Origin: Candidatus Trichorickettsia mobilis
Lineage (GTDB): Bacteria; Pseudomonadota; Alphaproteobacteria; Rickettsiales; Rickettsiaceae
Reading direction: 5' to 3'
Assembly (NCBI RefSeq): GCF_963422225.1
Contig: NZ_OY728607.1
Location: 558,001-622,000, forward strand
Length of the DNA: 64,000 nucleotides
How positions within the stretch are numbered: the first letter of the stretch is position 1; every line of letters begins with the position of its first letter. The translations under genes were made by a program, and so were the position numbers. The notes under the pieces were generated by a model. The model saw only the letters and a program-made list of their open reading frames with translations. It was not told the origin of the DNA and ran no database searches. Positions 20,130-62,259 of this stretch are shown piece after piece.

Positions 20130-22013
20130 CAATTGCTTCATAAATTTTAACCATTCCCTTCTCATCTCACTGTACGTTCAGTTTTCCCGAATACAGCGAA
20201 CCGATAGTGTATTCATCTTAAATCATTCACAGGCTTTCGGATGTGTTCCAGCATTCCACTACCGATGTATATTATACCTTTGGTATATAGTTTGCTATTT
20301 GGATAGTGTTGCCATCCATAACCGTGGCCTTTTCTTCTACGGTGTAAATATCTCCGAAAACGTATATTGATGAACCTCTGTAGTTTCCTGAATGCTTGAC
20401 TAGCATTAGTATGAAGATAGTAATTGCTCCATCCTCTTACCATTGTATTAATTTGTTCTACAAACTCTTCGGGTTGTATAGGGGCTCGCCATGATGTTTT
20501 ATATTTTATACTATTTCTAATCTTTTGTTCAGACGACTTCGCTGGAAATATATATATGGTATTCTTTCCACTAGTAGGACTTTGTCGTTTTATAAAATTA
20601 AATCCTACAAAATCAAAACCTTCTATTAATCTTGTAACTTTTGTTTTACTTTGATTTAATTTTAGGCTTAATCTTTCGGTAATTTCCTGAAATTTCTTTA
20701 AAGCTTTATAACCATCTCGTTGGCACACTAAAACTACATCATCGGCGAAACGATGTAATTTCCAGGGGTATTGCATTTTATGCCATATTTGATCTATTAG
20801 ATTTAGATAAATATTGCTATATAAAGGTGAAATAGGTGAGCCCTGTGGCACGCCTATCTTCACTCTTTTCTGATTACCAGACTTATCTATGTCAACTTTC
20901 AGGCTTTGCTTTATCAACCTCAACATAGCTCCATCACTTATTCTCTGCTTAATTAGTATTAGCAGGTTACCGTGAGGAATACTGTCAAAATATGATTCAA
21001 AATCTATTTCTACTACCGTAGCGGCTCGATCATATAAATCTTCTCTAATTGCTAGAGAAGCTTGTTTAGCATTTCGTTTCGGCCTATAACCGTAGGAGCA
21101 ATCATGAAAATCAGCTTCGAATATTGGTTCAATGACTATCTTCATTGCTGTTTGCACTATTCGATCTTTTACCGTTGCAATTCCTAATAAACGTGTGCCG
21201 CCTTTAGGTTTTGGTATTGCTACTTGTCTTATAGATGAAAACTTGTAACTTTGATCTTTTAGCCCTTGCTGCAATTCCCTGATCATTTCTTCTTCATATC
21301 CTGTGGTTATGATCTGTTCAATCGTAACACCATCATTTCCTGCCGCACCTTTGTTAGCCTTAACTTGTCTCCAAGCTTCTTGCAATACATCTGTACGATA
21401 GACTTTATCATATAAACTATAAAATTTGTAATTTACCTCCTGCTTGGATTTAAGATATAGAATTCTCTGAAGTTGACTAACTTTACTTATTCCATTCCTA
21501 GCTTTTATGCAATTGGACACTCTCAACTCTTTTAAATTCAGCTACTAAAGTAGAGCCCCTTTTCTCTCAATATGTTTCCATATCGATACAAACGATACTA
21601 TGGGCTCAGCGGACTTCTTGTATAACCGCTATGGATTTCGGCGTTACCTTATACTATAGCGTTCTTTCTGGCCAAGAAAATTATACAAGATCTCCCGACC
21701 TACGACGAAATACATTCCCAACGTGCAACCTCTTCTACTCCGGCACCCACAAGATAGTTCATATAACCATTTATCCCTATCCTTTACTAGCCTTCCCGTG
21801 ACTACGATACAGTCGGCAAGTGCATTAATTCTTTTACGAAGCTAATTTGAGTTCACTTTTGTTGCAGCCCGTTGTTTTGCATACAGATCACTTAAGCCTA
21901 TAAATCACTCTATAAACTCGACCCTTGCTAGACTCCCAAACGGTCAATTGGAGTCAGGAAGACTTTCACTTCCCTTGTAATTCGCCTGCATCGGCGTGCC
22001 ATAGTCCAACCAC
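20130..22013 (-). mobile_element. Group II intron with maturase/reverse transcriptase
   Basis: About 1.9 kb read on the minus strand. The probable 5' end is GTGGTTGGACTATGG at 22013, followed by a long structured leader rich in short helices (21530-22013). The RT frame is 20213-21526. Near the 3' end, 20168-20198 gives a hairpin like domain V (CGCTGTA...GGAAAAC...GTACAGTG) with a domain VI candidate after it. Boundaries are approximate. It sits between the repeat protein gene and the degenerate third repeat. Confidence 0.75.
20213..21526 (-). CDS. ltrA: Group II intron reverse transcriptase/maturase
   Basis: A 437-residue protein that splices and mobilises the intron. RT blocks in order: KANKGAAGNDGVTIEQ, RQVAIPKPKGGTRLLGIATVKDRIVQ, the metal site IDFESYFDSI (D175), IGVPQGSPISPLYSNI (224-239) and RFADDVVLV (F260-A-D-D263; Phe replaces the usual Tyr). 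The C-terminal maturase (X) domain includes MVRGWSNYYLHTNASQAFRKL. No HNH endonuclease follows, so retrohoming may depend on replication forks. The frame is intact. Confidence 0.9.
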   Translation of the reverse strand: MRVSNCIKARNGISKVSQLQRILYLKSKQEVNYKFYSLYDKVYRTDVLQEAWRQVKANKGAAGNDGVTIEQIITTGYEEEMIRELQQGLKDQSYKFSSIRQVAIPKPKGGTRLLGIATVKDRIVQTAMKIVIEPIFEADFHDCSYGYRPKRNAKQASLAIREDLYDRAATVVEIDFESYFDSIPHGNLLILIKQRISDGAMLRLIKQSLKVDIDKSGNQKRVKIGVPQGSPISPLYSNIYLNLIDQIWHKMQYPWKLHRFADDVVLVCQRDGYKALKKFQEITERLSLKLNQSKTKVTRLIEGFDFVGFNFIKRQSPTSGKNTIYIFPAKSSEQKIRNSIKYKTSWRAPIQPEEFVEQINTMVRGWSNYYLHTNASQAFRKLQRFINIRFRRYLHRRRKGHGYGWQHYPNSKLYTKGIIYIGSGMLEHIRKPVNDLR

Positions 22014-35165: not shown

Positions 35166-35276
35166 TATACTCCATGAAGATTAATTTAATAATTTAATAT
35201 AAAATTCTTCTTGAATATTGATATTATATTAAATATAGTTAAGTTTCAATTTTTATAATTAGGAGGCTATATATTT

Positions 35277-35901
35277 ATGAAAACTCAAGAAGAAACTACA
35301 ACTTTCAGTATGTTAGTCAATGGAGAATGTACTGATCAGAACTTATTAAATCAACATCTTTTTATTGAAAAGCCTGACTCTCAAATATTGAATATAAAAT
35401 TTGTAGGACCAGGATTATTAATGATTGACTCTATGTACTCTCCTATCAATAAACAAGCACTACAACAAGAAAGCTCTACATTAGTTTTTGGACATAATTG
35501 GTATGGATGGAATGATATAGAAAATATATCTACTATTGCTACTCCATATATAGCGCAACATAATATAACTAAACTTAATATAATATTGCAAATGCATGGA
35601 TTTGTGGAAGATAACTCTTACTATTTAGGCATGGAATACGACCCTACGGCAATTTGTGGAGCTCCAAAAAAGGTACTATCTAATCAGTTTATTAATGAGT
35701 TATCAAAATTAACTAACCTTGTTGAGAGTACCGACCTAATATCCATTGCTTGTTATGGTAAAAAAATGATAGAGCTAGGCGATCCAGAGATTATTCAACA
35801 GTTTAGTAACACAACATTTTGTTTTTTTTCTAAAGATGACGTGACTTGGCAAGGTGATATTTGCAATGGTTCACACCAATTAGATAGTTTTTTTCAATCC
35901 T
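35277..35901 (+). pseudogene. 5' part of a gene split by a Tn3-family transposon; clan CD peptidase-like motifs
   Basis: Residues 1-208 of an original 312-residue protein. An aggagg ribosome site precedes the ATG. Two hydrophobic strands end in candidate catalytic residues: TKLNIILQMH107-G and DLISIAC159-YG. This is the order and spacing (52 residues) of the His-Gly/Ala-Cys dyad of clan CD cysteine peptidases such as caspases and CHAT proteins. The assignment is by motif only. The frame continues into the transposon end and stops at 35963. Removing the transposon and one ATCCT copy joins it exactly to 40861-41174. Confidence 0.6.
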
Positions 35902-35959
35902 GGCGTCCGAAGCACAAATCCCCGCCAATAAACCAAAATGCCCTGTATACTTTATATCT

Positions 35960-38185
35960 CTAGGTGTATAAGGTTGTTTTTAGGTTCTTTTGTAACTGTG
36001 CAATTATATCCTCAATATTTATTGTACTTTTCCCTTGTAGGAATACATATTTGCCAATAAAGTTTATGTGTTCCCACCTTACTGGTGATATGCTGTTTAA
36101 ATAGTTTATTCCTTCTATATTTCCTTGTGCAATGCACTCTGCAAGTAGTTTATCTAGTATAATTGCATTGTATAATATTATAGAGTTTGCTAGTAATCTA
36201 GAGCATTGATTCCAGACCTCGTTCTCTAAAATGGTCTGTCCTCTGAACTTTCCACTATGCACTTTTGCTATAGCTCTACGTAGCTGGTGGTAAGACTCAA
36301 CCCTGTTTAAAGCTTTACGAATTTGACTACGTAAAATATCATCATCTATGAAATCCAGTAAATAGATGCTTTTCAGTATTGAATCATATTCCCAAAGAGC
36401 TGTTTTAATTCTGCTATATCTTTTATGAGATGACAACTTACTTATGATTGTAGCTTGTGTTGATTCTTGGGTAGCGAGTGATACAAAAATTCTTTGAATA
36501 TTTTCCCATTCCTCTGTGATAAGTTTTCTATTGGCCAGTTTAGTAGGTTTGATAAAGCAGTCTTTATAAAGGACCAGAGGTTTCATGCTCCTGAGACTTT
36601 TGACTTGTTCTTCTGGATCAGAAAAATTTGGCATAAATAATTTGCTTATGGAATCAAGCACAGCAAAATTGACTCTGTTGATTGAATGCATGTCTCCCGA
36701 TACAGCGTCTGGATCAACGTCAGAAGTATTATTATATATAATGTCGTAGGTATAATGGCTCTCATGTTCATTGGCGCCAATAATCTTGCAATTGATCGGT
36801 ACATGGTTGAGTACCATACTAAATGGGACAATACCTTTTTTTAAGCCAAAATATTTTGGAGAGTATCTAGCTTGCATAGTATCTAGCCTTGTTTCAAACT
36901 TTTGACCATCTACTGCAGCCAGTAACTTATCTGGTAAAATGTTCCACGAATTAAAAACCTTCAGACTTGCTATTTTGTTACTGATAATATCGTTAGCTTC
37001 TCGTAAATTCTCTAGGCTCAAAAAGTTTTTTTCTATATTACTCAGAGTGCTATAGCTTATATCACAACTTCGCGACATGCGATAAGTACCAAAGCTAAAC
37101 CCGTTTGCTACAATGCATGCAATGATTCCTTCGTAATCAGCTTTTTGCTTAGAATAACGTGGTTTAATATGATCAAAAGCTTCACAGAAGTTGGTTTGTT
37201 CGTTGATAAAATATAGTAATTCGCTGATATTGATATTTGGCACTCCAGCAAAGAAATTGTCATCTTTCTCCTCTGTAGTAGGGTTGATTAAATGCCATTT
37301 GTGCTGTGTTTTCCCATCCTTATCAACTTTGTCATCTTTAGTCTTGCTCTCTTTTATTTTAATGTGACTGTTTTCTTTACTGGCAATTTTTCTATTCACT
37401 TCTAGAATTTTTGTATGAAGTTTTACCTCTAACTCATTAAGTCTTTGTTCTATGTTGACTGCGATATTAGGATAGTTCAGTTTTTGTAGGAGTTCGTCTT
37501 TATTTTGCCATACCTTATCAGAGACAAGATCTGCACTCAGGCTTTTGTATTTGATACTTTCGTTACAAAAAATATTTCCTTTATCAATTTCTTTCGCAAT
37601 AGATTGATATAGATAAAACTCATATTTATCAGGATGATAAGCATTGATCTTGGTAGCTTTGTCTGAGTTTGTTCTTGCTTGCTTTGTACTTTCAGATTTA
37701 GCAGTACTATCATTTTTTGCAATATGTAGATACTTTCTGATATTTTTTGGGATAAATTTATCAGGAAATTTATCTGTAACTACTTTGCTCAAGGGCAAGT
37801 CTTTATCAAACACATCCTTCAAGAATGATATGGCTTGCATTAAATCATCATCCTTTTTAATGCTACAAAGCTCTATCGATCTGAATAGCATACGGAGATT
37901 GCCTTTGATACGCTTAGCCTTATTAACATAGAATTCCCATTTAGCAGACTCAAAATCAAAGGATTGTCCTGCAATATAGTCAGCGGTTGGTAGATATTGA
38001 GTTTTAGGAAGAATATTGTACGCAGATTTCCAAAAATTTGTATGGTCTATTTGCTCTGCATCTTCTCCCATAAATCTTAATAAGCTACTTACTTTTGGTA
38101 AATTGTTGTTATAATGGATTGTATGGAGTAAGAGTTGCTGATTAGCATATTCATTGGCTTCTTGAATGAAGTTGTTATTATAATA
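35960..38185 (-). pseudogene. tnpA: Tn3 transposase TnpA, C-terminal part (split by IS5-type element)
   Basis: Carries the DDE catalytic core: LLAAVDGQKFETRLDTMQARYSPKYF (first Asp), VSGDMHSINRVNFAVLDSI (second Asp region) and LENEVWNQCSRLLANSIILYNAIIL (Glu end), all classical Tn3 TnpA motifs. The 703-residue frame opens at 38071, but the coding frame continues upstream without a stop to the IS end at 38185 (FIQEANEYANQQLLLHTIHY). It is the direct continuation of 39091-40002. With the IS removed, the whole would be about 1044 residues. Confidence 0.85.
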
Positions 38186-39091
38186 GACCTCTTTCGAAAC
38201 TCATTTACCAAGCTCCCAATTATATAAACCAGCAATTAAATTGAACCTAAGACCAAATCTTTTGCGTCTATTTCGATGCAATTATTTTAAAACGCTTTAA
38301 CATAATTTATCACCGATAACATTTTCATTTAATACTCTGTCACTTGCTAAACTTCTATTATTTTTCTTATCTTCTTTAGTTAAAGCATTCTTTTTACTCT
38401 TTTTCTTTGGTAGCTCAGAATTTGTATGAATCTTCTGTAAGCCTTGATAACCAGTATCAGTAATCACTTTAACCTCAGGCAGTATATGGGTTCTTGATTC
38501 TTTAAATAATTTAAAATCATGACGCTTACCATTGGAAAAAGAAGTGCATATGACTCGTTTGCTTTTCTTATCTACTACTATTTGAGTCTTTAACGTATGT
38601 CTTTTCTTTTTACCTGAGTAATAGTATTTCTGTTTTTTTGGGGTCGCTCTATAGGGCTTTCTGTAGCATCTATTAAAACTAATTCATACTCCATACCGCT
38701 TTTAACTAGAGCCTTCTTACCTGGAAGAGCAAAATCCGGATGTTTTATTAGAGTGTCTTCAACAAAACGAATTGTTTTAAATGCACTGCTTTCGCTAACT
38801 CCATAATTCTTAGCTATATGAAAATAGGTACGGTATTCCCTTAAATATTCAAGTGTCATTAATAGGCTGTCTTCCATACTAAGACTAGCTCTTCTGCCAC
38901 CTTGGTACCTCCTATTTATTTGTTTCTCTGTCTTTAAAATCCCTACCATCTTTTCAAATGTACTATTTCTTACCCCTGTTAATCTTCTAAAATGCTCTTC
39001 CGATAAAATGCTTAAATTTTTATATCTCATATAGTTCTAAATTAAGTAAATTCGACTTTATAACATATTTAGTCCAGTTTCGAAAGAGGTC
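38186..39091 (-). mobile_element. IS5-family (IS427-like) insertion sequence, copy 1, inside tnpA
   Basis: 906 bases with 16-base inverted ends GACCTCTTTCGAAACT, flanked by TA (or TAATA read as a longer target copy). It has the same length and near-identical sequence as copy 2 (43023-43928). The only difference I see is that the 8-base block ATTTATCA lies 31 bases further along on the plus strand in this copy, which breaks the second transposase frame. Confidence 0.85.
38297..39030 (-). pseudogene. IS5-type transposase, disrupted copy
   Basis: The first frame (38590-39030, 146 residues, MRYKNLSILSEEHFRRL...) is identical to copy 2 and includes the N-terminal helix-turn-helix and the first catalytic Asp (LVLIDATE). 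The second frame, normally reached by -1 slippage on seven As, ends early: after ENVIG it reads DKLC and stops at 38297, because of the displaced 8-base block. The C-terminal DDE part is lost. Confidence 0.75.
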
Positions 39092-40002
39092 TAATAGATA
39101 AAACTGGTAATTAAATTATTGATGATTTCTTTGTATCTCTGATTAATGTAGCATAGCAAACATAGTTTTCTAAGAGACCTGCTAAGTTTTTCTAATCTGT
39201 AAATATTGTATTCATCTGCAATACCAGCGTAGTACCTAATACATTTAGGTGATATTTCAAGTTTATCTATTAGCTGTTTAGATAGTTTATAATATTCTGA
39301 ATACGTAAGAGACTTAGCACATTCTGCTTTGAGCTCTAAATATTTAAAATTCTTTGGTTCTATCTTGAGTATTGATAAATTTACTGTAGAACCTGATTGA
39401 GTCATATTTGACAAAAAGGTCTCAAAGGCTTGAGATATATTACTCGTAAGGATATTGTCTATACGTTTAAATTCGATGCTGATTGCTAAACTTATGATGC
39501 CCTGTAATATAGTATAACTTGGCAATGTGATTTGTCTTATCTGAATCTGAGACAATAGTTCCCTAAAAATATCTAGATGATTTGCATGAATACGAGCTAA
39601 AAGTAGAGCTTGTTCTACAAGCTCTTTGTGTGCCTTATCGTTGAAATCTCGAAAATTCAGTAAAGCAAGAATCTTCTTATTGGTTTCGTCTTTTTTTGCC
39701 TTCAGCAATATACTTTTGTGTTTATTTTGGATAGTAAAATACTGAGTCAATACATAATCTAAGTCTTGTTGGACATCTTCGTAATTAAAAGAAAATAACC
39801 GACCTTTGGCTTTAAAATAGCCAAGTTGTAATATTGCATAAACTTTAGAAGAAATATCAGGAATTTTTTCAACAAACTGTCTCTCTTTCTTATTTAAAGT
39901 AAAGAAAACAATCTTTTCTTCTAATGTAAATTTTGGCAAAGAATAAAGATCATTGATTTCAGCTTCGCTTAAAATTTTGATACGTTTATAACCTGTAACC
40001 AT
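39091..40002 (-). pseudogene. tnpA: Tn3 transposase TnpA, N-terminal part
   Basis: 303 residues: the DUF4158-type N-terminus (ILSEAEINDLYSLPKFTLEEKIVFFTL, then YAILQLGYFKAKGRLFSF) typical of Tn3 transposases that bind the inverted ends. It ends in ...NLITSFIY where the IS5-type element begins; skipping the IS and one target copy restores the frame into 38185. Divergent from tnpR across the res region. Confidence 0.85.
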
Positions 40003-40138
40003 AAAATTATAACTTTTTGTATAGGATAAAACGGCCGTTAAGAGAATGCTGTTTTGTAGGTGCGTTATATGTTATATAGTATATATACTATGTATAGTTT
40101 TCTTCTAATACTAGAGTTAAAACTTAACGGGCTAAAAA
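40003..40138. promoter_or_regulatory. Probable res site and divergent promoters of the Tn3 element
   Basis: 136 bases between tnpA and tnpR. It contains 'tatatagtatatatactatgtata' type dyad symmetry near 40075-40100, as expected for resolvase subsites that also repress both genes. Exact subsites were not resolved. Confidence 0.5.
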
Positions 40139-40789
40139 ATGACCAAAATTATTGCTTATATTCGTACCTCAACAGATAAACAGGAATTAAATAATCAAAA
40201 ACTTGCAATATTGGAATATGCACAAAAAAATAATTTAAAAATAAATGAGTTTGTTGAGATTCAAATGTCTTCTAGAAAAACTCCTAAACAGAGGAGAATC
40301 GAAGACGTCTTAGAAAGACTCTCTAGTTCTGATATGTTGATTGTAACAGAGCTTAGTAGACTTGGTAGAAGTACTCCTGAAGTTATAGAACTGGTCAATG
40401 CGCTAGTTGCAAGAAATGTCAGGGTGGTAATACTTAAACAAAACCTTGATATCAGCAAGCAGGATATGAATTCCAAAGTTACAATTACCTTGTTTGCATT
40501 ATTTTCGGATCTTGAACGCGATCTGATTAGCTTACGTACCAAAGATGCCCTTGCACTCAAAAAGTCTCAAGGACAAATACTAGGTAAGCCAATTGGAACT
40601 CTACAAAAAAGTAAGTTTGACAAAGATGCCAGCAAAATTATAGAACTCTTAAAACTTGGACTTTCAATAAGAAAAATAGCAAAATTCTTTGGTTACAAGA
40701 ATCATATCTCACTCAACACTTATATTAACAAAAGACATTTAAAAGACGGAACTTTAAATGATCAGAGCGGGGGCTTGAAAACAGCCTGA
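40139..40789 (+). CDS. tnpR: Serine resolvase/invertase (TnpR)
   Basis: Resolves Tn3 cointegrates at res. Of 216 residues, the catalytic motif is Y7-I-R-T-S11, followed by the conserved arginines in RTKDA and ELSRLGRSTPEVIEL, LFALFSDLERDLISLRTKDAL and a C-terminal helix-turn-helix (GLSIRKIAKFFGY). The frame is intact, so the transposon could still resolve even though its transposase is broken. Confidence 0.92.
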   Translation: MTKIIAYIRTSTDKQELNNQKLAILEYAQKNNLKINEFVEIQMSSRKTPKQRRIEDVLERLSSSDMLIVTELSRLGRSTPEVIELVNALVARNVRVVILKQNLDISKQDMNSKVTITLFALFSDLERDLISLRTKDALALKKSQGQILGKPIGTLQKSKFDKDASKIIELLKLGLSIRKIAKFFGYKNHISLNTYINKRHLKDGTLNDQSGGLKTA

Positions 40790-40855
40790 AACTCTATATC
40801 TCAAAGGGTGTAGAGAGTAGTTGGTTTATCGGCGGGGATTTGTGCTTCGGACGCC

Positions 40856-41174
40856 ATCCTATAACATGAGTGTTATGGAACGTTGTTTACTTACATATGC
40901 TATGAATGTTAAAGAAAAATTGCATGTGCCGCATGTAATAAAAGCAGAGTTAGAAGTAAATTTCTCTGAAATATTAAGTACGTTATATATTTCAGAAAAT
41001 ATAGCCAACAATCCATTTATACAGACACTAATTAGCACAGATATTATAAATAGTGGAAAGACAGAAGAGTTATTAGGTAATGAAATTATTAGTGCTTTTC
41101 CTGATATTTCAGCATCGAGTTTTGGAGCAATATTAGGCGCATGTATATTTGATTATTTTCACCATGAGGCTTGA
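40856..41174 (+). pseudogene. 3' part of the gene split by the Tn3-family transposon
   Basis: Continuation of 35277-35901. After the target copy the frame reads YNMSVMERCLLTYAMNVKEKL...SSFGAILGACIFDYFHHEA and stops at 41174: 104 residues, mostly helical. A start inside the transposon end (40821) exists but is fortuitous. No domain recognised in this part. Confidence 0.65.
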
Positions 41175-41217: not shown

Positions 41218-41393
41218 AGCGTTGTTCACGGTTTTTAGAAAAACCGTCATTGCGAAGAGCCTTAGCTCTGAAGCAATCCAGAAAATCTAACGTAAAGAAA
41301 CTGGATTGCTTCGGCTAAAAGCCTCGCAATGACGATGGTTGTAACTTTGTAAGTCGTATATTGACGTTCAATTTTAAAAACCGTGAATGCTCA
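41218..41393. repeat. Composite palindrome: family B nested in family C, at the nhaC-type gene end
   Basis: Outer family-C ends 'agcgttgttcacggttttt' and 'ttttaaaaaccgtgaatgct'. Inside, 41245-41334 is a full family-B element, followed by 'ttgtaagtcgtatattgac'. The same composite, with the B part inverted, is at 59732-59910. The right end supplies the last codons and stop of the antiporter gene. Confidence 0.8.
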
Positions 41394-43022: not shown

Positions 43023-43928
43023 GACCTCTTTCGAAACTCATTTACCAAGCTCCCAATTATATAAACCAGCAATTAAATTGAACCTAAGACCAAATCTTTT
43101 GCGTCTATTTCGATATTTATCAGCAATTATTTTAAAACGCTTTAACATACCGATAACATTTTCATTTAATACTCTGTCACTTGCTAAACTTCTATTATTT
43201 TTCTTATCTTCTTTAGTTAAAGCATTCTTTTTACTCTTTTTCTTTGGTAGCTCAGAATTTGTATGAATCTTCTGTAAGCCTTGATAACCAGTATCAGTAA
43301 TCACTTTAACCTCAGGCAGTATATGGGTTCTTGATTCTTTAAATAATTTAAAATCATGACGCTTACCATTGGAAAAAGAAGTGCATATGACTCGTTTGCT
43401 TTTCTTATCTACTACTATTTGAGTCTTTAACGTATGTCTTTTCTTTTTACCTGAGTAATAGTATTTCTGTTTTTTTGGGGTCGCTCTATAGGGCTTTCTG
43501 TAGCATCTATTAAAACTAATTCATACTCCATACCGCTTTTAACTAGAGCCTTCTTACCTGGAAGAGCAAAATCCGGATGTTTTATTAGAGTGTCTTCAAC
43601 AAAACGAATTGTTTTAAATGCACTGCTTTCGCTAACTCCATAATTCTTAGCTATATGAAAATAGGTACGGTATTCCCTTAAATATTCAAGTGTCATTAAT
43701 AGGCTGTCTTCCATACTAAGACTAGCTCTTCTGCCACCTTGGTACCTCCTATTTATTTGTTTCTCTGTCTTTAAAATCCCTACCATCTTTTCAAATGTAC
43801 TATTTCTTACCCCTGTTAATCTTCTAAAATGCTCTTCCGATAAAATGCTTAAATTTTTATATCTCATATAGTTCTAAATTAAGTAAATTCGACTTTATAA
43901 CATATTTAGTCCAGTTTCGAAAGAGGTC
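43023..43928 (-). mobile_element. IS5-family (IS427-like) insertion sequence, copy 2
   Basis: 906 bases with 16-base inverted ends GACCTCTTTCGAAACT, flanked by TA (or a longer TATTA copy). The transposase is encoded in two overlapping frames. This copy appears complete and is the likely active one of the two in the window. Confidence 0.88.
43038..43867 (-). CDS. IS5-type DDE transposase, made by -1 frameshift
   Basis: The first frame (43427-43867, 146 residues) has an N-terminal helix-turn-helix region and LVLIDATE (first Asp). Near its end the coding strand has CCCC followed by seven As, a slippery run. The second frame is one base back and continues through the ITDTGYQG (second Asp) and LNENVIGMLKRFKIIADKYRNRRKRF (Glu with the K/R end) motifs to 43038. 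Together about 275 residues, the usual size for IS427-group transposases. Confidence 0.82.
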
Positions 43929-44067
43929 TATTATATAATGTGTTTTCATTCTAACTTTATTTATTATAATAAGTCAAGCAATATTTATTGTAGATTCTGG
44001 CATTGTTAAGTAAGTATAGATATAACTAATAAAGTAGGAATTGATATTATAGGAGTTGGTTAAGGAG

Positions 44068-45085: not shown

Positions 45086-45817
45086 ATGCCAGAAGTTTTT
45101 TTTAATGGCCCATCAGGTCGCATCGAAGGACGATATACCGAATCCAGCAACAAGAAGGCGCCTCTTGCGTTGGTACTACATCCGAATCCTTCATATGGTG
45201 GCACGATGAATAATAAGGTAGTATATAATACCTACAAAGCTTTGGTTGAACACGGATTCACTGTACTCAGAGTCAATTTTAGAGGAGTGGGACGTTCCCA
45301 AGGAGTATTTGATAACGGTATTGGCGAAATGACTGATGCTGCCACAGCGCTAGACTGGTTACAAATTAATAACCAGTATAGTGATATAAACTTAATTGCA
45401 GGGTTTTCATTCGGTGCCTGGATTGCTATGCAACTTATTATGCGCCGGCCAGAAATTAACCATTTTATAGCAATTTCTCCACCTGTAAATAAATATGATT
45501 TTTCATTTTTATCCCCTTGCCCAATTCCAGGTCTTATAGTGCAAGGAGATCAGGACAGTATAGTTTCAGAAGAAGCAGTCGTAGAACTGGCAAATAAATT
45601 ATCAAAACAAAGACATATACAAGTAGATTATAAGCTAATTAACGGAGCAGACCATTTTTTCCGTAATAAAATTGAAGAATTAACTCAAGTTCTAAGTGAG
45701 TTTTTGCAATTAAAATTCTCTAATCAGCCAAATAACCAGCAATTTGTACAATCAAACATCAGGGATATTGAAGAAACTATACAAGAAACAAAACGCCAGA
45801 AAGTGTTTCTTGATTAA
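45086..45817 (+). CDS. Alpha/beta hydrolase, dienelactone-hydrolase-like
   Basis: A 243-residue hydrolase. LVLHPNPSYGGTMNNKVV carries the oxyanion region, the nucleophile is S108 in AGFSFGAW, the acid is in VQGDQDSIV and the histidine in GADHFF. This layout (COG2945-type, 'HPxPxxGGxxxNKVV') is widespread in proteobacteria but of unknown substrate. Its 3' end overlaps the convergent anmK gene by 41 bases. Confidence 0.85.
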   Translation: MPEVFFNGPSGRIEGRYTESSNKKAPLALVLHPNPSYGGTMNNKVVYNTYKALVEHGFTVLRVNFRGVGRSQGVFDNGIGEMTDAATALDWLQINNQYSDINLIAGFSFGAWIAMQLIMRRPEINHFIAISPPVNKYDFSFLSPCPIPGLIVQGDQDSIVSEEAVVELANKLSKQRHIQVDYKLINGADHFFRNKIEELTQVLSEFLQLKFSNQPNNQQFVQSNIRDIEETIQETKRQKVFLD

Positions 45818-60094: not shown

Positions 60095-60472
60095 TTATAT
60101 GATTCCTTCTGCCTCTGCTGCTACAACTATAGCATCTCTAACCCCGCGCACTGCATCAATTAGTTTTTGAGTATCTTCAATTATATCTTCTTCTATATTT
60201 AATTTTTCCATTTCCATGGAAGCTGAAAACAAAAATCGATCAAAATATCTCATAGTTTCGTTGCCATCTTCCACGTCAATCCCTGCACGTACTATATCAA
60301 AAATATCTGCAGCTTTTCTCAAACTTTTATATTTTTCTTCAATATCATTTTCTTGAGCCGACTTCTTTGCTTGATATAATTTTTTTATTACTTCATCAAA
60401 AATTAAAACAACCTGCTGAGTCTTATTAACATATTTTATGGCAACAGATTTATACTGAGCATATGGATCCAT
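60095..60472 (-). CDS. fliS: Flagellar export chaperone FliS
   Basis: Cytosolic chaperone that holds flagellin and delays its polymerisation. The 125 residues are four helices: YAQYKSVAIKYVNKTQQVVLIFDEVIKKLYQAKK, EEKYKSLRKAADIFDIVRAGIDVEDGNETMRYFDRFLF and a C-terminal coil, fitting FliS. It follows fliD by 23 bases. No flagellin gene is in the window. Confidence 0.85.
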   Translation of the reverse strand: MDPYAQYKSVAIKYVNKTQQVVLIFDEVIKKLYQAKKSAQENDIEEKYKSLRKAADIFDIVRAGIDVEDGNETMRYFDRFLFSASMEMEKLNIEEDIIEDTQKLIDAVRGVRDAIVVAAEAEGII

Positions 60473-60495
60473 AAATATTTTCCTTCATTTAATTT

Positions 60496-62259
60496 TTATC
60501 TATTATCTAGCAATCCTTCAAGAAAATCATTAAATAACTCTGCTTGAATTTCTATCATCCTTAATTGAAACACATCTGCTGCTATTTTTTTCTGTTGCTC
60601 ATCTAAAGCAGCTTCAGTTTTTTCTTTTTCTGTACTATACTTTGTGAGAGCTTCATTCGCCCTTGCTAACGCCTTATCGACAAGTCCTGTTGACGTAGTA
60701 TTTACCAATCCATTCAAACCTATAGATAATCTATCACAAACACCTTGTACTATATTCACCGTATATTCTTCTGTTGCATTCATTGCAACATTGCCTGGAT
60801 TCTGAAAAAATAAACTTACTCCTGCTAGATCTGTTCCTTCAAAAGTAATAAAACCGTTATCATAACCTGCAACATTAAATAGCACTCCACCATCTAATGA
60901 AAACCGAACTTCAGTAACAGCCCCACCTCCATCAACATCAACTTGAATTTGGATATCATGACCCACAAGATTAACCGGTAGCACTCTGCTACTATCCATA
61001 TATAAAAGAGTTGAACCAGCATTTACTGTTGGAGTAATGACTGTATTATTTCTAAATAATTTATCCACCGCATCTAAATTATTTGTTATTGCATCAAAAA
61101 AACGCTCCTGATCTTTTATAGTTAATTGGGGTATTTCAGGAGTATCTCCATCAGCCGGAAGCATCCGCAACCCTAAACCAATACTACCAAGACCAGTTAT
61201 ACCTACAAGCCCAGGAACAATACTAAGCATATTTTTTACAATATTATCCGTAATTTGCATTTCTCTGTTATTTGCTTTGCCTAAAACAGCATCTTTAGCA
61301 TAATCGTTTCCTTTCCAGTTTTGTTGAATGGCTGAGAATTTTATATAATCGTTATAAGCATTAAGTAGTCCTCCAATTTGTTCTGCTGCTTGCTTAACAT
61401 CATCGATAACTCTTATTGTTTGTTTCTGACCCAGGTTATTAATTTTCCTTAGATCTAAATCAACTCCAGCTAAAACTCCTGTTAATTTATTGGAAGCACT
61501 AGTGATTACTACTCCATCTACCTCAGCACTAGCATTTGCGCCAGGTGTAGGAACAACTACTCCAATTGCTCCAGCTGCTCCACCATTTCCAAATTCAGCA
61601 CCAAACTCGTCACCACCACCATTTACAGCAATCGTTCTAAGTCCAGTTACAGTACTTCTAAGAACTAAAGCTTGCTGATTAGTACCTACCTGTGTTACTA
61701 ATTCTGCTTTTATATCCTCAGCATTTAACTGAGCATTTAACTTATTGCAAACAATTTGCAAAGTATCATTTTGTAGAACATTAACAATAATAGCTGGCAC
61801 AACAGCGACTCCATTAGTAATATCTATCTGTATTGCTCTATCTTGGGTCATTGCATTATATCCCACTGCGAACAAGCCAGTCCTTACACTGGCAGCAGTA
61901 GCAAGTGCAGTAACTGTTACCTCTATGTCTCCTTTAGCTGCTTTTTTAGAATCAATAGTGGCAGTCACATAATCTCCAGCATTACCTACATCATTAGTAA
62001 TTGCGTCAACGGTTTTTTGAGAAAATGCTTCACTCGTAGAATTTAATATACCTGCCTTAAACTTAGTGGATGCAATCTGCAAAGCACTTATTGATTGCTG
62101 TAGCTTATAAATAGCTTCAACTTCTTTATCACCAAACTCAATCTTATCATCTATTTTCTTAACTTCGTCTTGAAAAGGTTTTAGCCTTCTTTCCTTCATA
62201 GCGTCTATATCAAACATAGAGCTAAAATTTATTGGTCCGCTATTTGCTACTTTTGGCAT
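60496..62259 (-). CDS. fliD: Flagellar hook-associated protein 2 (filament cap)
   Basis: Caps the growing filament and directs flagellin insertion. The 587 residues have an N-terminal FliD_N domain (SGPINFSSMFDIDAMKERRLKPFQDEVKKIDDKI ... LQQSISALQIASTKF), a variable middle rich in Gly/Ala/Thr/Asn beta segments, and the C-terminal domain with GLLNAYNDYIKFSA, LGLRMLPADGDTPEIPQLTI and a final coiled coil (TEAALDEQQKKIAADVFQLRMIEIQAELFNDFLEGLLD). Followed by fliS in the same direction. The C-terminal coil is unusually well conserved for the family. Confidence 0.85.
   Translation of the reverse strand: MPKVANSGPINFSSMFDIDAMKERRLKPFQDEVKKIDDKIEFGDKEVEAIYKLQQSISALQIASTKFKAGILNSTSEAFSQKTVDAITNDVGNAGDYVTATIDSKKAAKGDIEVTVTALATAASVRTGLFAVGYNAMTQDRAIQIDITNGVAVVPAIIVNVLQNDTLQIVCNKLNAQLNAEDIKAELVTQVGTNQQALVLRSTVTGLRTIAVNGGGDEFGAEFGNGGAAGAIGVVVPTPGANASAEVDGVVITSASNKLTGVLAGVDLDLRKINNLGQKQTIRVIDDVKQAAEQIGGLLNAYNDYIKFSAIQQNWKGNDYAKDAVLGKANNREMQITDNIVKNMLSIVPGLVGITGLGSIGLGLRMLPADGDTPEIPQLTIKDQERFFDAITNNLDAVDKLFRNNTVITPTVNAGSTLLYMDSSRVLPVNLVGHDIQIQVDVDGGGAVTEVRFSLDGGVLFNVAGYDNGFITFEGTDLAGVSLFFQNPGNVAMNATEEYTVNIVQGVCDRLSIGLNGLVNTTSTGLVDKALARANEALTKYSTEKEKTEAALDEQQKKIAADVFQLRMIEIQAELFNDFLEGLLDNR

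What the first reader, a model, noticed from the sequence alone, without database searches (positions are those of the whole stretch)
35277..41174. Tn3-split gene whose restored product has a clan CD (caspase/CHAT-like) His-Cys layout
Removing 35902-40855 plus one ATCCT copy gives a continuous 312-residue frame. It has two hydrophobic strands ending in H107-G and A-C159-Y-G, 52 residues apart, which is the layout of the clan CD cysteine peptidase dyad. It could be an effector or defence-type protease recently knocked out in this strain. The joining is seen directly; the peptidase identity is inference from motif spacing only.
Basis: partly seen in the sequence, partly recalled or inferred. Interest (0 to 1): 0.7.

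Follow-up and report, generated by a model that had tools for sequence, protein, structure and literature searches.

The report
Caspase-like symbiont protease, broken by transposon
A gene cut in two by a jumping element in a bacterium of the rickettsia family belongs to an unnamed protein family whose uncut relatives, some of them in insect symbionts, are predicted to fold like caspases with a likely His-Cys active site, so it was likely a host-directed protease that this bacterium has probably lost.

The parts
35261..35266 (+). AGGAGG, likely ribosome-binding site, 10 nt before the ATG at 35277
   Evidence: read
35277..35963 (+). 5' part as it stands: 228-codon ORF, 208 codons of the gene plus 20 from the junction and the transposon end
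   Evidence: modelled as it is
35595..35597 (+). codon of H107, predicted catalytic His after core strand 3
   Evidence: invariant in 11 of 11 rows; strand 99-105 precedes it in the P0004 model
35751..35753 (+). codon of C159, predicted nucleophile after core strand 4
   Evidence: invariant in 11 of 11 rows; strand 151-156 precedes it in the P0004 model
35829..35858 (+). conserved S-x-x-D-x-T-W-Q-x-D stretch after strand 5, position of the clan CD S1-pocket loop L5 (inferred)
   Evidence: S180, D183, T185, W186, Q187, D189 (P0004 numbering) invariant in 11 of 11 rows; role of L5 from PMC4357240 passages; model confidence here is low (block 181-190 mean pLDDT 53)
35897..35901 (.). target-site duplication ATCCT, left copy
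35902..40855 (.). Tn3-family element, 4,954 bp
   Evidence: 35-bp inverted ends with 34 of 35 matches; DDE_Tnp_Tn3 and Resolvase domains
35960..38071 (-). Tn3 transposase, 703-aa C-terminal piece
   Evidence: PF01526, E 2.2e-106; 92.6% identical to a transposase on a Ca. Megaera polyxenophila plasmid
38181..39096 (.). nested insertion sequence that splits the Tn3 transposase; holds ORF 38590-39030
   Evidence: 21-nt inverted repeats at 38181-38201 and 39076-39096; 782 bp identical to a second copy at 43149-43930
39091..40002 (-). Tn3 transposase, N-terminal piece (DUF4158)
   Evidence: PF13700, E 9.1e-28
40139..40789 (+). serine recombinase (resolvase) of the Tn3 element
   Evidence: PF00239, E 8.9e-33
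40856..40860 (.). target-site duplication ATCCT, right copy
40857..41174 (+). 3' part of the gene, 105 codons plus stop
   Evidence: 39% identical to P0004 203-306, 69% to the sister-species remnant

Best explanation
A Tn3-type transposon has cut a gene whose uncut relatives are predicted to be stand-alone clan CD (caspase/legumain-fold) cysteine proteases, likely secreted to cut host proteins, and the cut has likely abolished this function here. Shown: the insertion, the shared frame, the common relatives of the two parts, the invariant His and Cys, the rarity and the repeated breakage. Predicted: the fold, and His107 activating Cys159 as nucleophile for peptide hydrolysis. Inferred with less support: the invariant Asp and Trp after strand 5 line the S1 pocket, which would favour a basic P1 residue (Arg or Lys). 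Inferred by analogy only: it works like the protease half of the Rickettsiaceae type IV effectors RARP-2/dRARP-2, delivered into the eukaryotic host cell but without their ankyrin targeting part. Loss: the 228-residue product left in this genome keeps His and Cys but lacks the C-terminal third; its model is of low confidence from residue 159 on.
Against: No sequence-level link to any peptidase: no convincing Pfam, NCBIfam, PADLOC or PHROGs match in 11 members (best E 0.014, 0.0066, 0.034 and 0.024, all to unrelated families), no PDB sequence match at E <= 10, and hhalign against 23 C14 domains scored 16.8, lower than 5 of 30 column-shuffled controls (the query profile was shallow, Neff 1.8). 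Foldseek TM-scores are low (0.27-0.29 by query for the four best, at most 0.33 in the list) and a chloroperoxidase and an alpha/beta-hydrolase follow at ranks 6 and 8. The alignment behind the model is shallow: 8 rows, four of them Tisiphia or near it and two the separate window parts. The L5 stretch is modelled with low confidence (block 181-190 mean 53, residues 188-191 under 50). Model coordinates are not returned, so the His-Cys distance is unmeasured. In the model of the truncated ORF the dyad residues sit at strand ends (E107-111, E151-159), and its structural matches include non-clan-CD folds such as Notum and Cap5. Nothing tested shows secretion: VirB4 is general in these bacteria (recalled). 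P0008 has Val in place of Gly108 (its gene is frame-broken in the MAG).
Confidence: 0.6

Rival explanations
1. A clan CD protease that acts inside the bacterium (a metacaspase/orthocaspase-like housekeeping or stress enzyme), not on the host.
For: Same predicted fold. C14 genes are common elsewhere in the class: 26 of 115 genomes, none in the window's own. No signal peptide or targeting domain seen (by eye and by Pfam; no signal-peptide program was run); the gene sits alone among housekeeping genes.
Against: Rare and patchy (5 of 343 genomes searched in the order), broken in 3 of those 5, and faster changing than its neighbours (3' part 71% identical to the sister copy against 91-97% for four neighbouring genes), which is unlike housekeeping. 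Not C14 by sequence.
Confidence: 0.2
2. A catalytically dead or non-peptidase protein on a caspase-like fold (pseudo-enzyme, or another His-Cys enzyme).
For: No sequence similarity to any peptidase family; TM-scores are low.
Against: The His-Cys pair is the only invariant His and Cys in 11 of 11 rows, at the catalytic positions of the fold.
Confidence: 0.12
3. A bacterial defence (abortive-infection) protease of the caspase/CHAT kind.
Against: One PADLOC match among 11 members, at E 0.034; stand-alone gene with different housekeeping neighbours in the lineages looked at; no relative found in viral contigs or plasmids.
Confidence: 0.05
4. Chance: a non-homologous alpha/beta fold (such as an alpha/beta-hydrolase) with a His-Cys coincidence.
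For: A chloroperoxidase and an alpha/beta-hydrolase stand at ranks 6 and 8 of the Foldseek list.
Confidence: 0.03

Closest known systems
RARP-2 and dRARP-2 (ankyrin-repeat effectors of Rickettsia, Tisiphia and one Midichloriaceae symbiont)
   Same: Same bacterial family (Tisiphia holds both kinds), predicted clan CD His-Cys protease domain on the N-terminal side (PMC11077975 section 10; PMC7259798 passages).
   Different: Ours has no ankyrin match in 11 members, stands alone at about 310-370 residues in uncut members, and our profile finds no further relative in the 15 other genomes of G035's genus (inferred to be Tisiphia) at E <= 10; whether those genomes carry dRARP-2 was not checked. No sequence of RARP-2 or dRARP-2 was fetched or compared.
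Caspases (C14A) and legumain/asparaginyl endopeptidases (C13)
   Same: Predicted fold and position of the dyad.
   Different: 6-15% identity in the 50 structural alignments; no Pfam C14 or C13 match.
Bacterial C14 orthocaspases/metacaspases of Alphaproteobacteria
   Same: Clan CD, His-Cys dyad (recalled and abstracts listed; PF00656 in 26 of 115 class genomes).
   Different: No profile similarity: hhalign probability 0.4%, lower than 5 of 30 shuffled controls.
C11 clostripain-like peptidases
   Same: One of the four best Foldseek hits, 6n9j.
   Different: Nine-stranded sheet and extra C-terminal helices in the solved PmC11 (PMC4357240 passage); no Pfam C11 match.

Membership tests
Clan CD cysteine peptidases | Caspase/haemoglobinase fold: strands 2-1-3-4 with helices 1-3 (PMC4357240 passages) | tested here: met
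Clan CD cysteine peptidases | His after strand 3 and Cys after strand 4 | tested here: met
   H107 follows strand 99-105, C159 follows strand 151-156; invariant in 11 of 11 rows; distance not measured
Clan CD cysteine peptidases | Gly next to the catalytic His | tested here: met
   G108 in 10 of 11 rows; Val in P0008
Clan CD cysteine peptidases | Cys-dependent peptide hydrolysis | not testable with these tools
   needs an enzyme assay
C14 (caspase/metacaspase/orthocaspase) | Sequence similarity to PF00656 | tested here: not met
   no match in 11 members at E <= 1; hhalign against 23 C14 domains lower than 5 of 30 shuffled controls
C14A caspases | S1 pocket built for P1 Asp (Arg on loops L1 and L5) | tested here: inconclusive
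   no invariant Arg; Asp183 and Trp186 in the L5 position point to a basic P1, by inference on a low-confidence part of the model
RARP-2/dRARP-2 effectors | N-terminal clan CD protease domain | tested here: met
   by predicted fold only
RARP-2/dRARP-2 effectors | C-terminal ankyrin repeats | tested here: not met
   no ankyrin match in 11 members at E <= 1
RARP-2/dRARP-2 effectors | Secretion by the rvh type IV system through a C-terminal tail | not testable with these tools
   VirB4 present in 5 of 5 carrier genomes, which shows only that a route may exist
CHAT and other defence proteases | Match to a known defence family and a partner gene | tested here: not met
   one PADLOC match, E 0.034, in 1 of 11 members; neighbours not recognised as defence genes
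Tn3-family transposon | Terminal inverted repeats of about 35 bp, 5-bp target duplication, DDE transposase, resolvase | tested here: met

The most novel reading that the evidence does not exclude
A new, unnamed clan CD peptidase family confined to Rickettsiaceae: a minimal, single-domain caspase mimic without ankyrin targeting that symbionts of protists, algae and insects inject into host cells to cut cell-death or trafficking proteins, and the kind of stand-alone protease from which ankyrin-bearing effectors such as RARP-2 could have been built.
Probability: 0.25. Interest if true: 0.75.

Novelty: new variant of a known kind. Interest (0 to 1): 0.5.

Why it matters
If true, it adds an unannotated protease family to the few enzymes through which rickettsia-like symbionts may act on their hosts, and gives a small ankyrin-free protein (intact Tisiphia versions exist) on which the unknown substrate preference of Rickettsiaceae clan CD effectors could be studied. 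It also shows such a gene being lost repeatedly: by a transposon here, by a deletion in the sister species, and by a frame break in a MAG (which could be an assembly error).

Tried and rejected
Pfam, NCBIfam, PADLOC and PHROGs scans of the pieces and of 11 members: nothing convincing; Pfam hits such as DUF7787, nSTAND_NTPase4 or Cac1_C (best E 0.014) and an NCBIfam hit at E 0.0066 (15 bits against a 600-bit cut-off, 4 of 11 members) were rejected as chance. PDB sequence search with the profile: none. Profile-profile test against 23 alphaproteobacterial C14 domains: failed, 5 of 30 column-shuffled controls scored higher. Plasmid tblastn and viral contigs: no relative. Relatives by our profile at E <= 10 in the 16 genomes of G035's genus: only the orthologue already known. 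The window's own genome holds no second copy. Genus of the window: not named by any search; the flagellar genes (recognised by eye) and the Tn3 kin on a Ca. Megaera plasmid suggest a protist symbiont, which I leave open. Literature: search listings; passages of PMC10847448, PMC11077975, PMC7259798 and PMC4357240; section 10 of PMC11077975. The searches (1, 1 and the first 10 of 71 papers listed) showed no paper on an ankyrin-free clan CD protease in Rickettsiaceae; only this open-access library was searched, with few terms.
Full report
Where it is. The window is bases 558001-622000 of a single-contig 1.68-Mb genome. Relatives of the gene that bear names are Rickettsiaceae: Candidatus Tisiphia endosymbionts of Oplodontha viridula and Micropterix aruncella, a Candidatus Phycorickettsia trachydisci MAG and a 'Rickettsiaceae bacterium'. 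The genus of the window itself is not named by any search.

The observation. The gene starts at 35277 behind AGGAGG (35261-35266) and is interrupted after 208 codons plus one base. ATCCT stands on both sides of an insert of 35902-40855. The insert has 35-bp ends with 34 of 35 matches, a DDE_Tnp_Tn3 transposase and a resolvase. Counting bases on both sides shows that the two parts are in one frame, 312 codons plus stop. That they were one gene is shown by relatives: part 1 aligns to residues 12-203 of the Tisiphia protein P0004 at 47% identity, part 2 to residues 203-306 at 39%. In the sister species G001, between the same two neighbours (a HAD-family hydrolase and an Na+/H+ antiporter), a 146-codon remnant runs across the same point without an insert: 33 of 41 residues match part 1 and 73 of 106 aligned positions match part 2.

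The family. A search of 5.8 billion proteins with growing alignments found, besides the window's own ORF, 9 other proteins: P0002-P0007 at E <= 1 and P0008-P0010 in the second round at E <= 10, whose table of 8 rows does not list P0002 and P0005 again. Part 1 alone found only itself. Genome searches found the family in 5 of 85 genomes of the bacterial family and the same 5 of 343 of the order. It is uncut in two of the five (G035, G014). It is broken in three: in the window by Tn3; in G001 by loss of the part that matches residues 1-167, dyad included, with only about 55 bp left between the remnant and the HAD gene; in G065 by a frame change between a 90- and a 244-codon ORF, which in a MAG could be an assembly error. 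No relative was found in plasmids or viral contigs, and no second copy in the own genome. Neighbours differ by lineage: in G035 genes that I recognise as rpsB and cysS, in G014 terC and an lppC-like gene, in G065 an alpha/beta-hydrolase gene whose relative lies about 3.9 kb downstream in the window. There is thus no fixed partner gene in the lineages seen.

The dyad. In an alignment of 11 rows (A6) 23 columns are invariant; among them are one His (H107) and one Cys (C159). One of the 23, K223, falls in the transposon-encoded tail of the window's row and is a coincidence. The rows are not independent: five are Tisiphia or close to it, two Phycorickettsia-like, one the window, three the P0008-P0010 group, so about four lineages. 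Gly108 is kept in 10 of 11. A stretch S180-x-x-D183-x-T185-W186-Q187-x-D189 is also invariant.

Host-directed effector or not. In Rickettsiaceae a clan CD protease domain is known in RARP-2, a type IV secreted effector whose predicted catalytic Cys is needed for its effect on the trans-Golgi (PMC7259798, passages including the abstract), and in 56 divergent dRARP-2 proteins, mostly from Bellii-group Rickettsia and Tisiphia, with ankyrin domains (PMC11077975 section 10). The present family shares bacterial family and predicted clan, and 5 of 5 carrier genomes have VirB4, but it has no ankyrin match, and our profile reaches nothing else in the genomes of G035's genus. So it may work like them in the protease step; it is not a member. 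Patchy presence, breakage and relaxed or rapid change (omega 0.69, bootstrap 0.36-1.48, for the 3' part against the sister remnant; 0.23, 0.07-0.60, for 41 codons of the 5' part; 0.04-0.11 for four neighbouring genes) fit an accessory host-interaction gene better than housekeeping, but they also fit simple decay.

Age of the insertion. Both parts are still open. Three copies of the transposon end in this genome are identical over 79 bp, and the IS inside the transposase shares 782 identical bp with the copy at 43149-43930. This fits a recent event, yet the Tn3 received the IS at some time before or after it landed here.

Verdict. The thing is a small unannotated family of predicted caspase-fold proteases in Rickettsiaceae, broken in this genome. 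It is a new variant of a known kind.

Noticed in passing
window 38181-39096 and 43149-43930: An insertion sequence sits inside the Tn3 transposase gene and splits it (ORFs 35960-38071 and 39091-40002); a second copy shares 782 identical bases.
   Followed up: partly
G000:C1 383114-383192, 593902-593980, 1188296-1188374: The transposase-side end of this Tn3 occurs three times in the genome, 100% identical over 79 bp; a copy at about 383114-387156 looks shorter (about 4.0 kb), as if without the IS. One relative, G013, has the end at 90%.
   Followed up: partly
window 35960-38071: The Tn3 transposase is 92.6% identical to one on a Candidatus Megaera polyxenophila plasmid (NZ_CP104168.1), while the other nine rows listed are under 40%: likely exchange of the element among Rickettsiaceae symbionts.
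   Followed up: no
window 60095-62259: Genes that I recognise as fliS and fliD: a Rickettsiaceae member with flagellar genes.
   Followed up: no
window 20213-21966 (-): Group II intron (Rfam D1-D4 match at 21728-21966) with what looks like its reverse-transcriptase ORF at 20213-21526.
   Followed up: no
window 41230-41350: A palindromic repeat-like stretch directly behind the gene.
   Followed up: no
L013 699-1720 and 2008-2721; window 45086-45814: In the MAG G065 the broken relative stands beside an alpha/beta-hydrolase gene whose relative lies about 3.9 kb behind the split gene in the window: perhaps an old shared location.
   Followed up: partly
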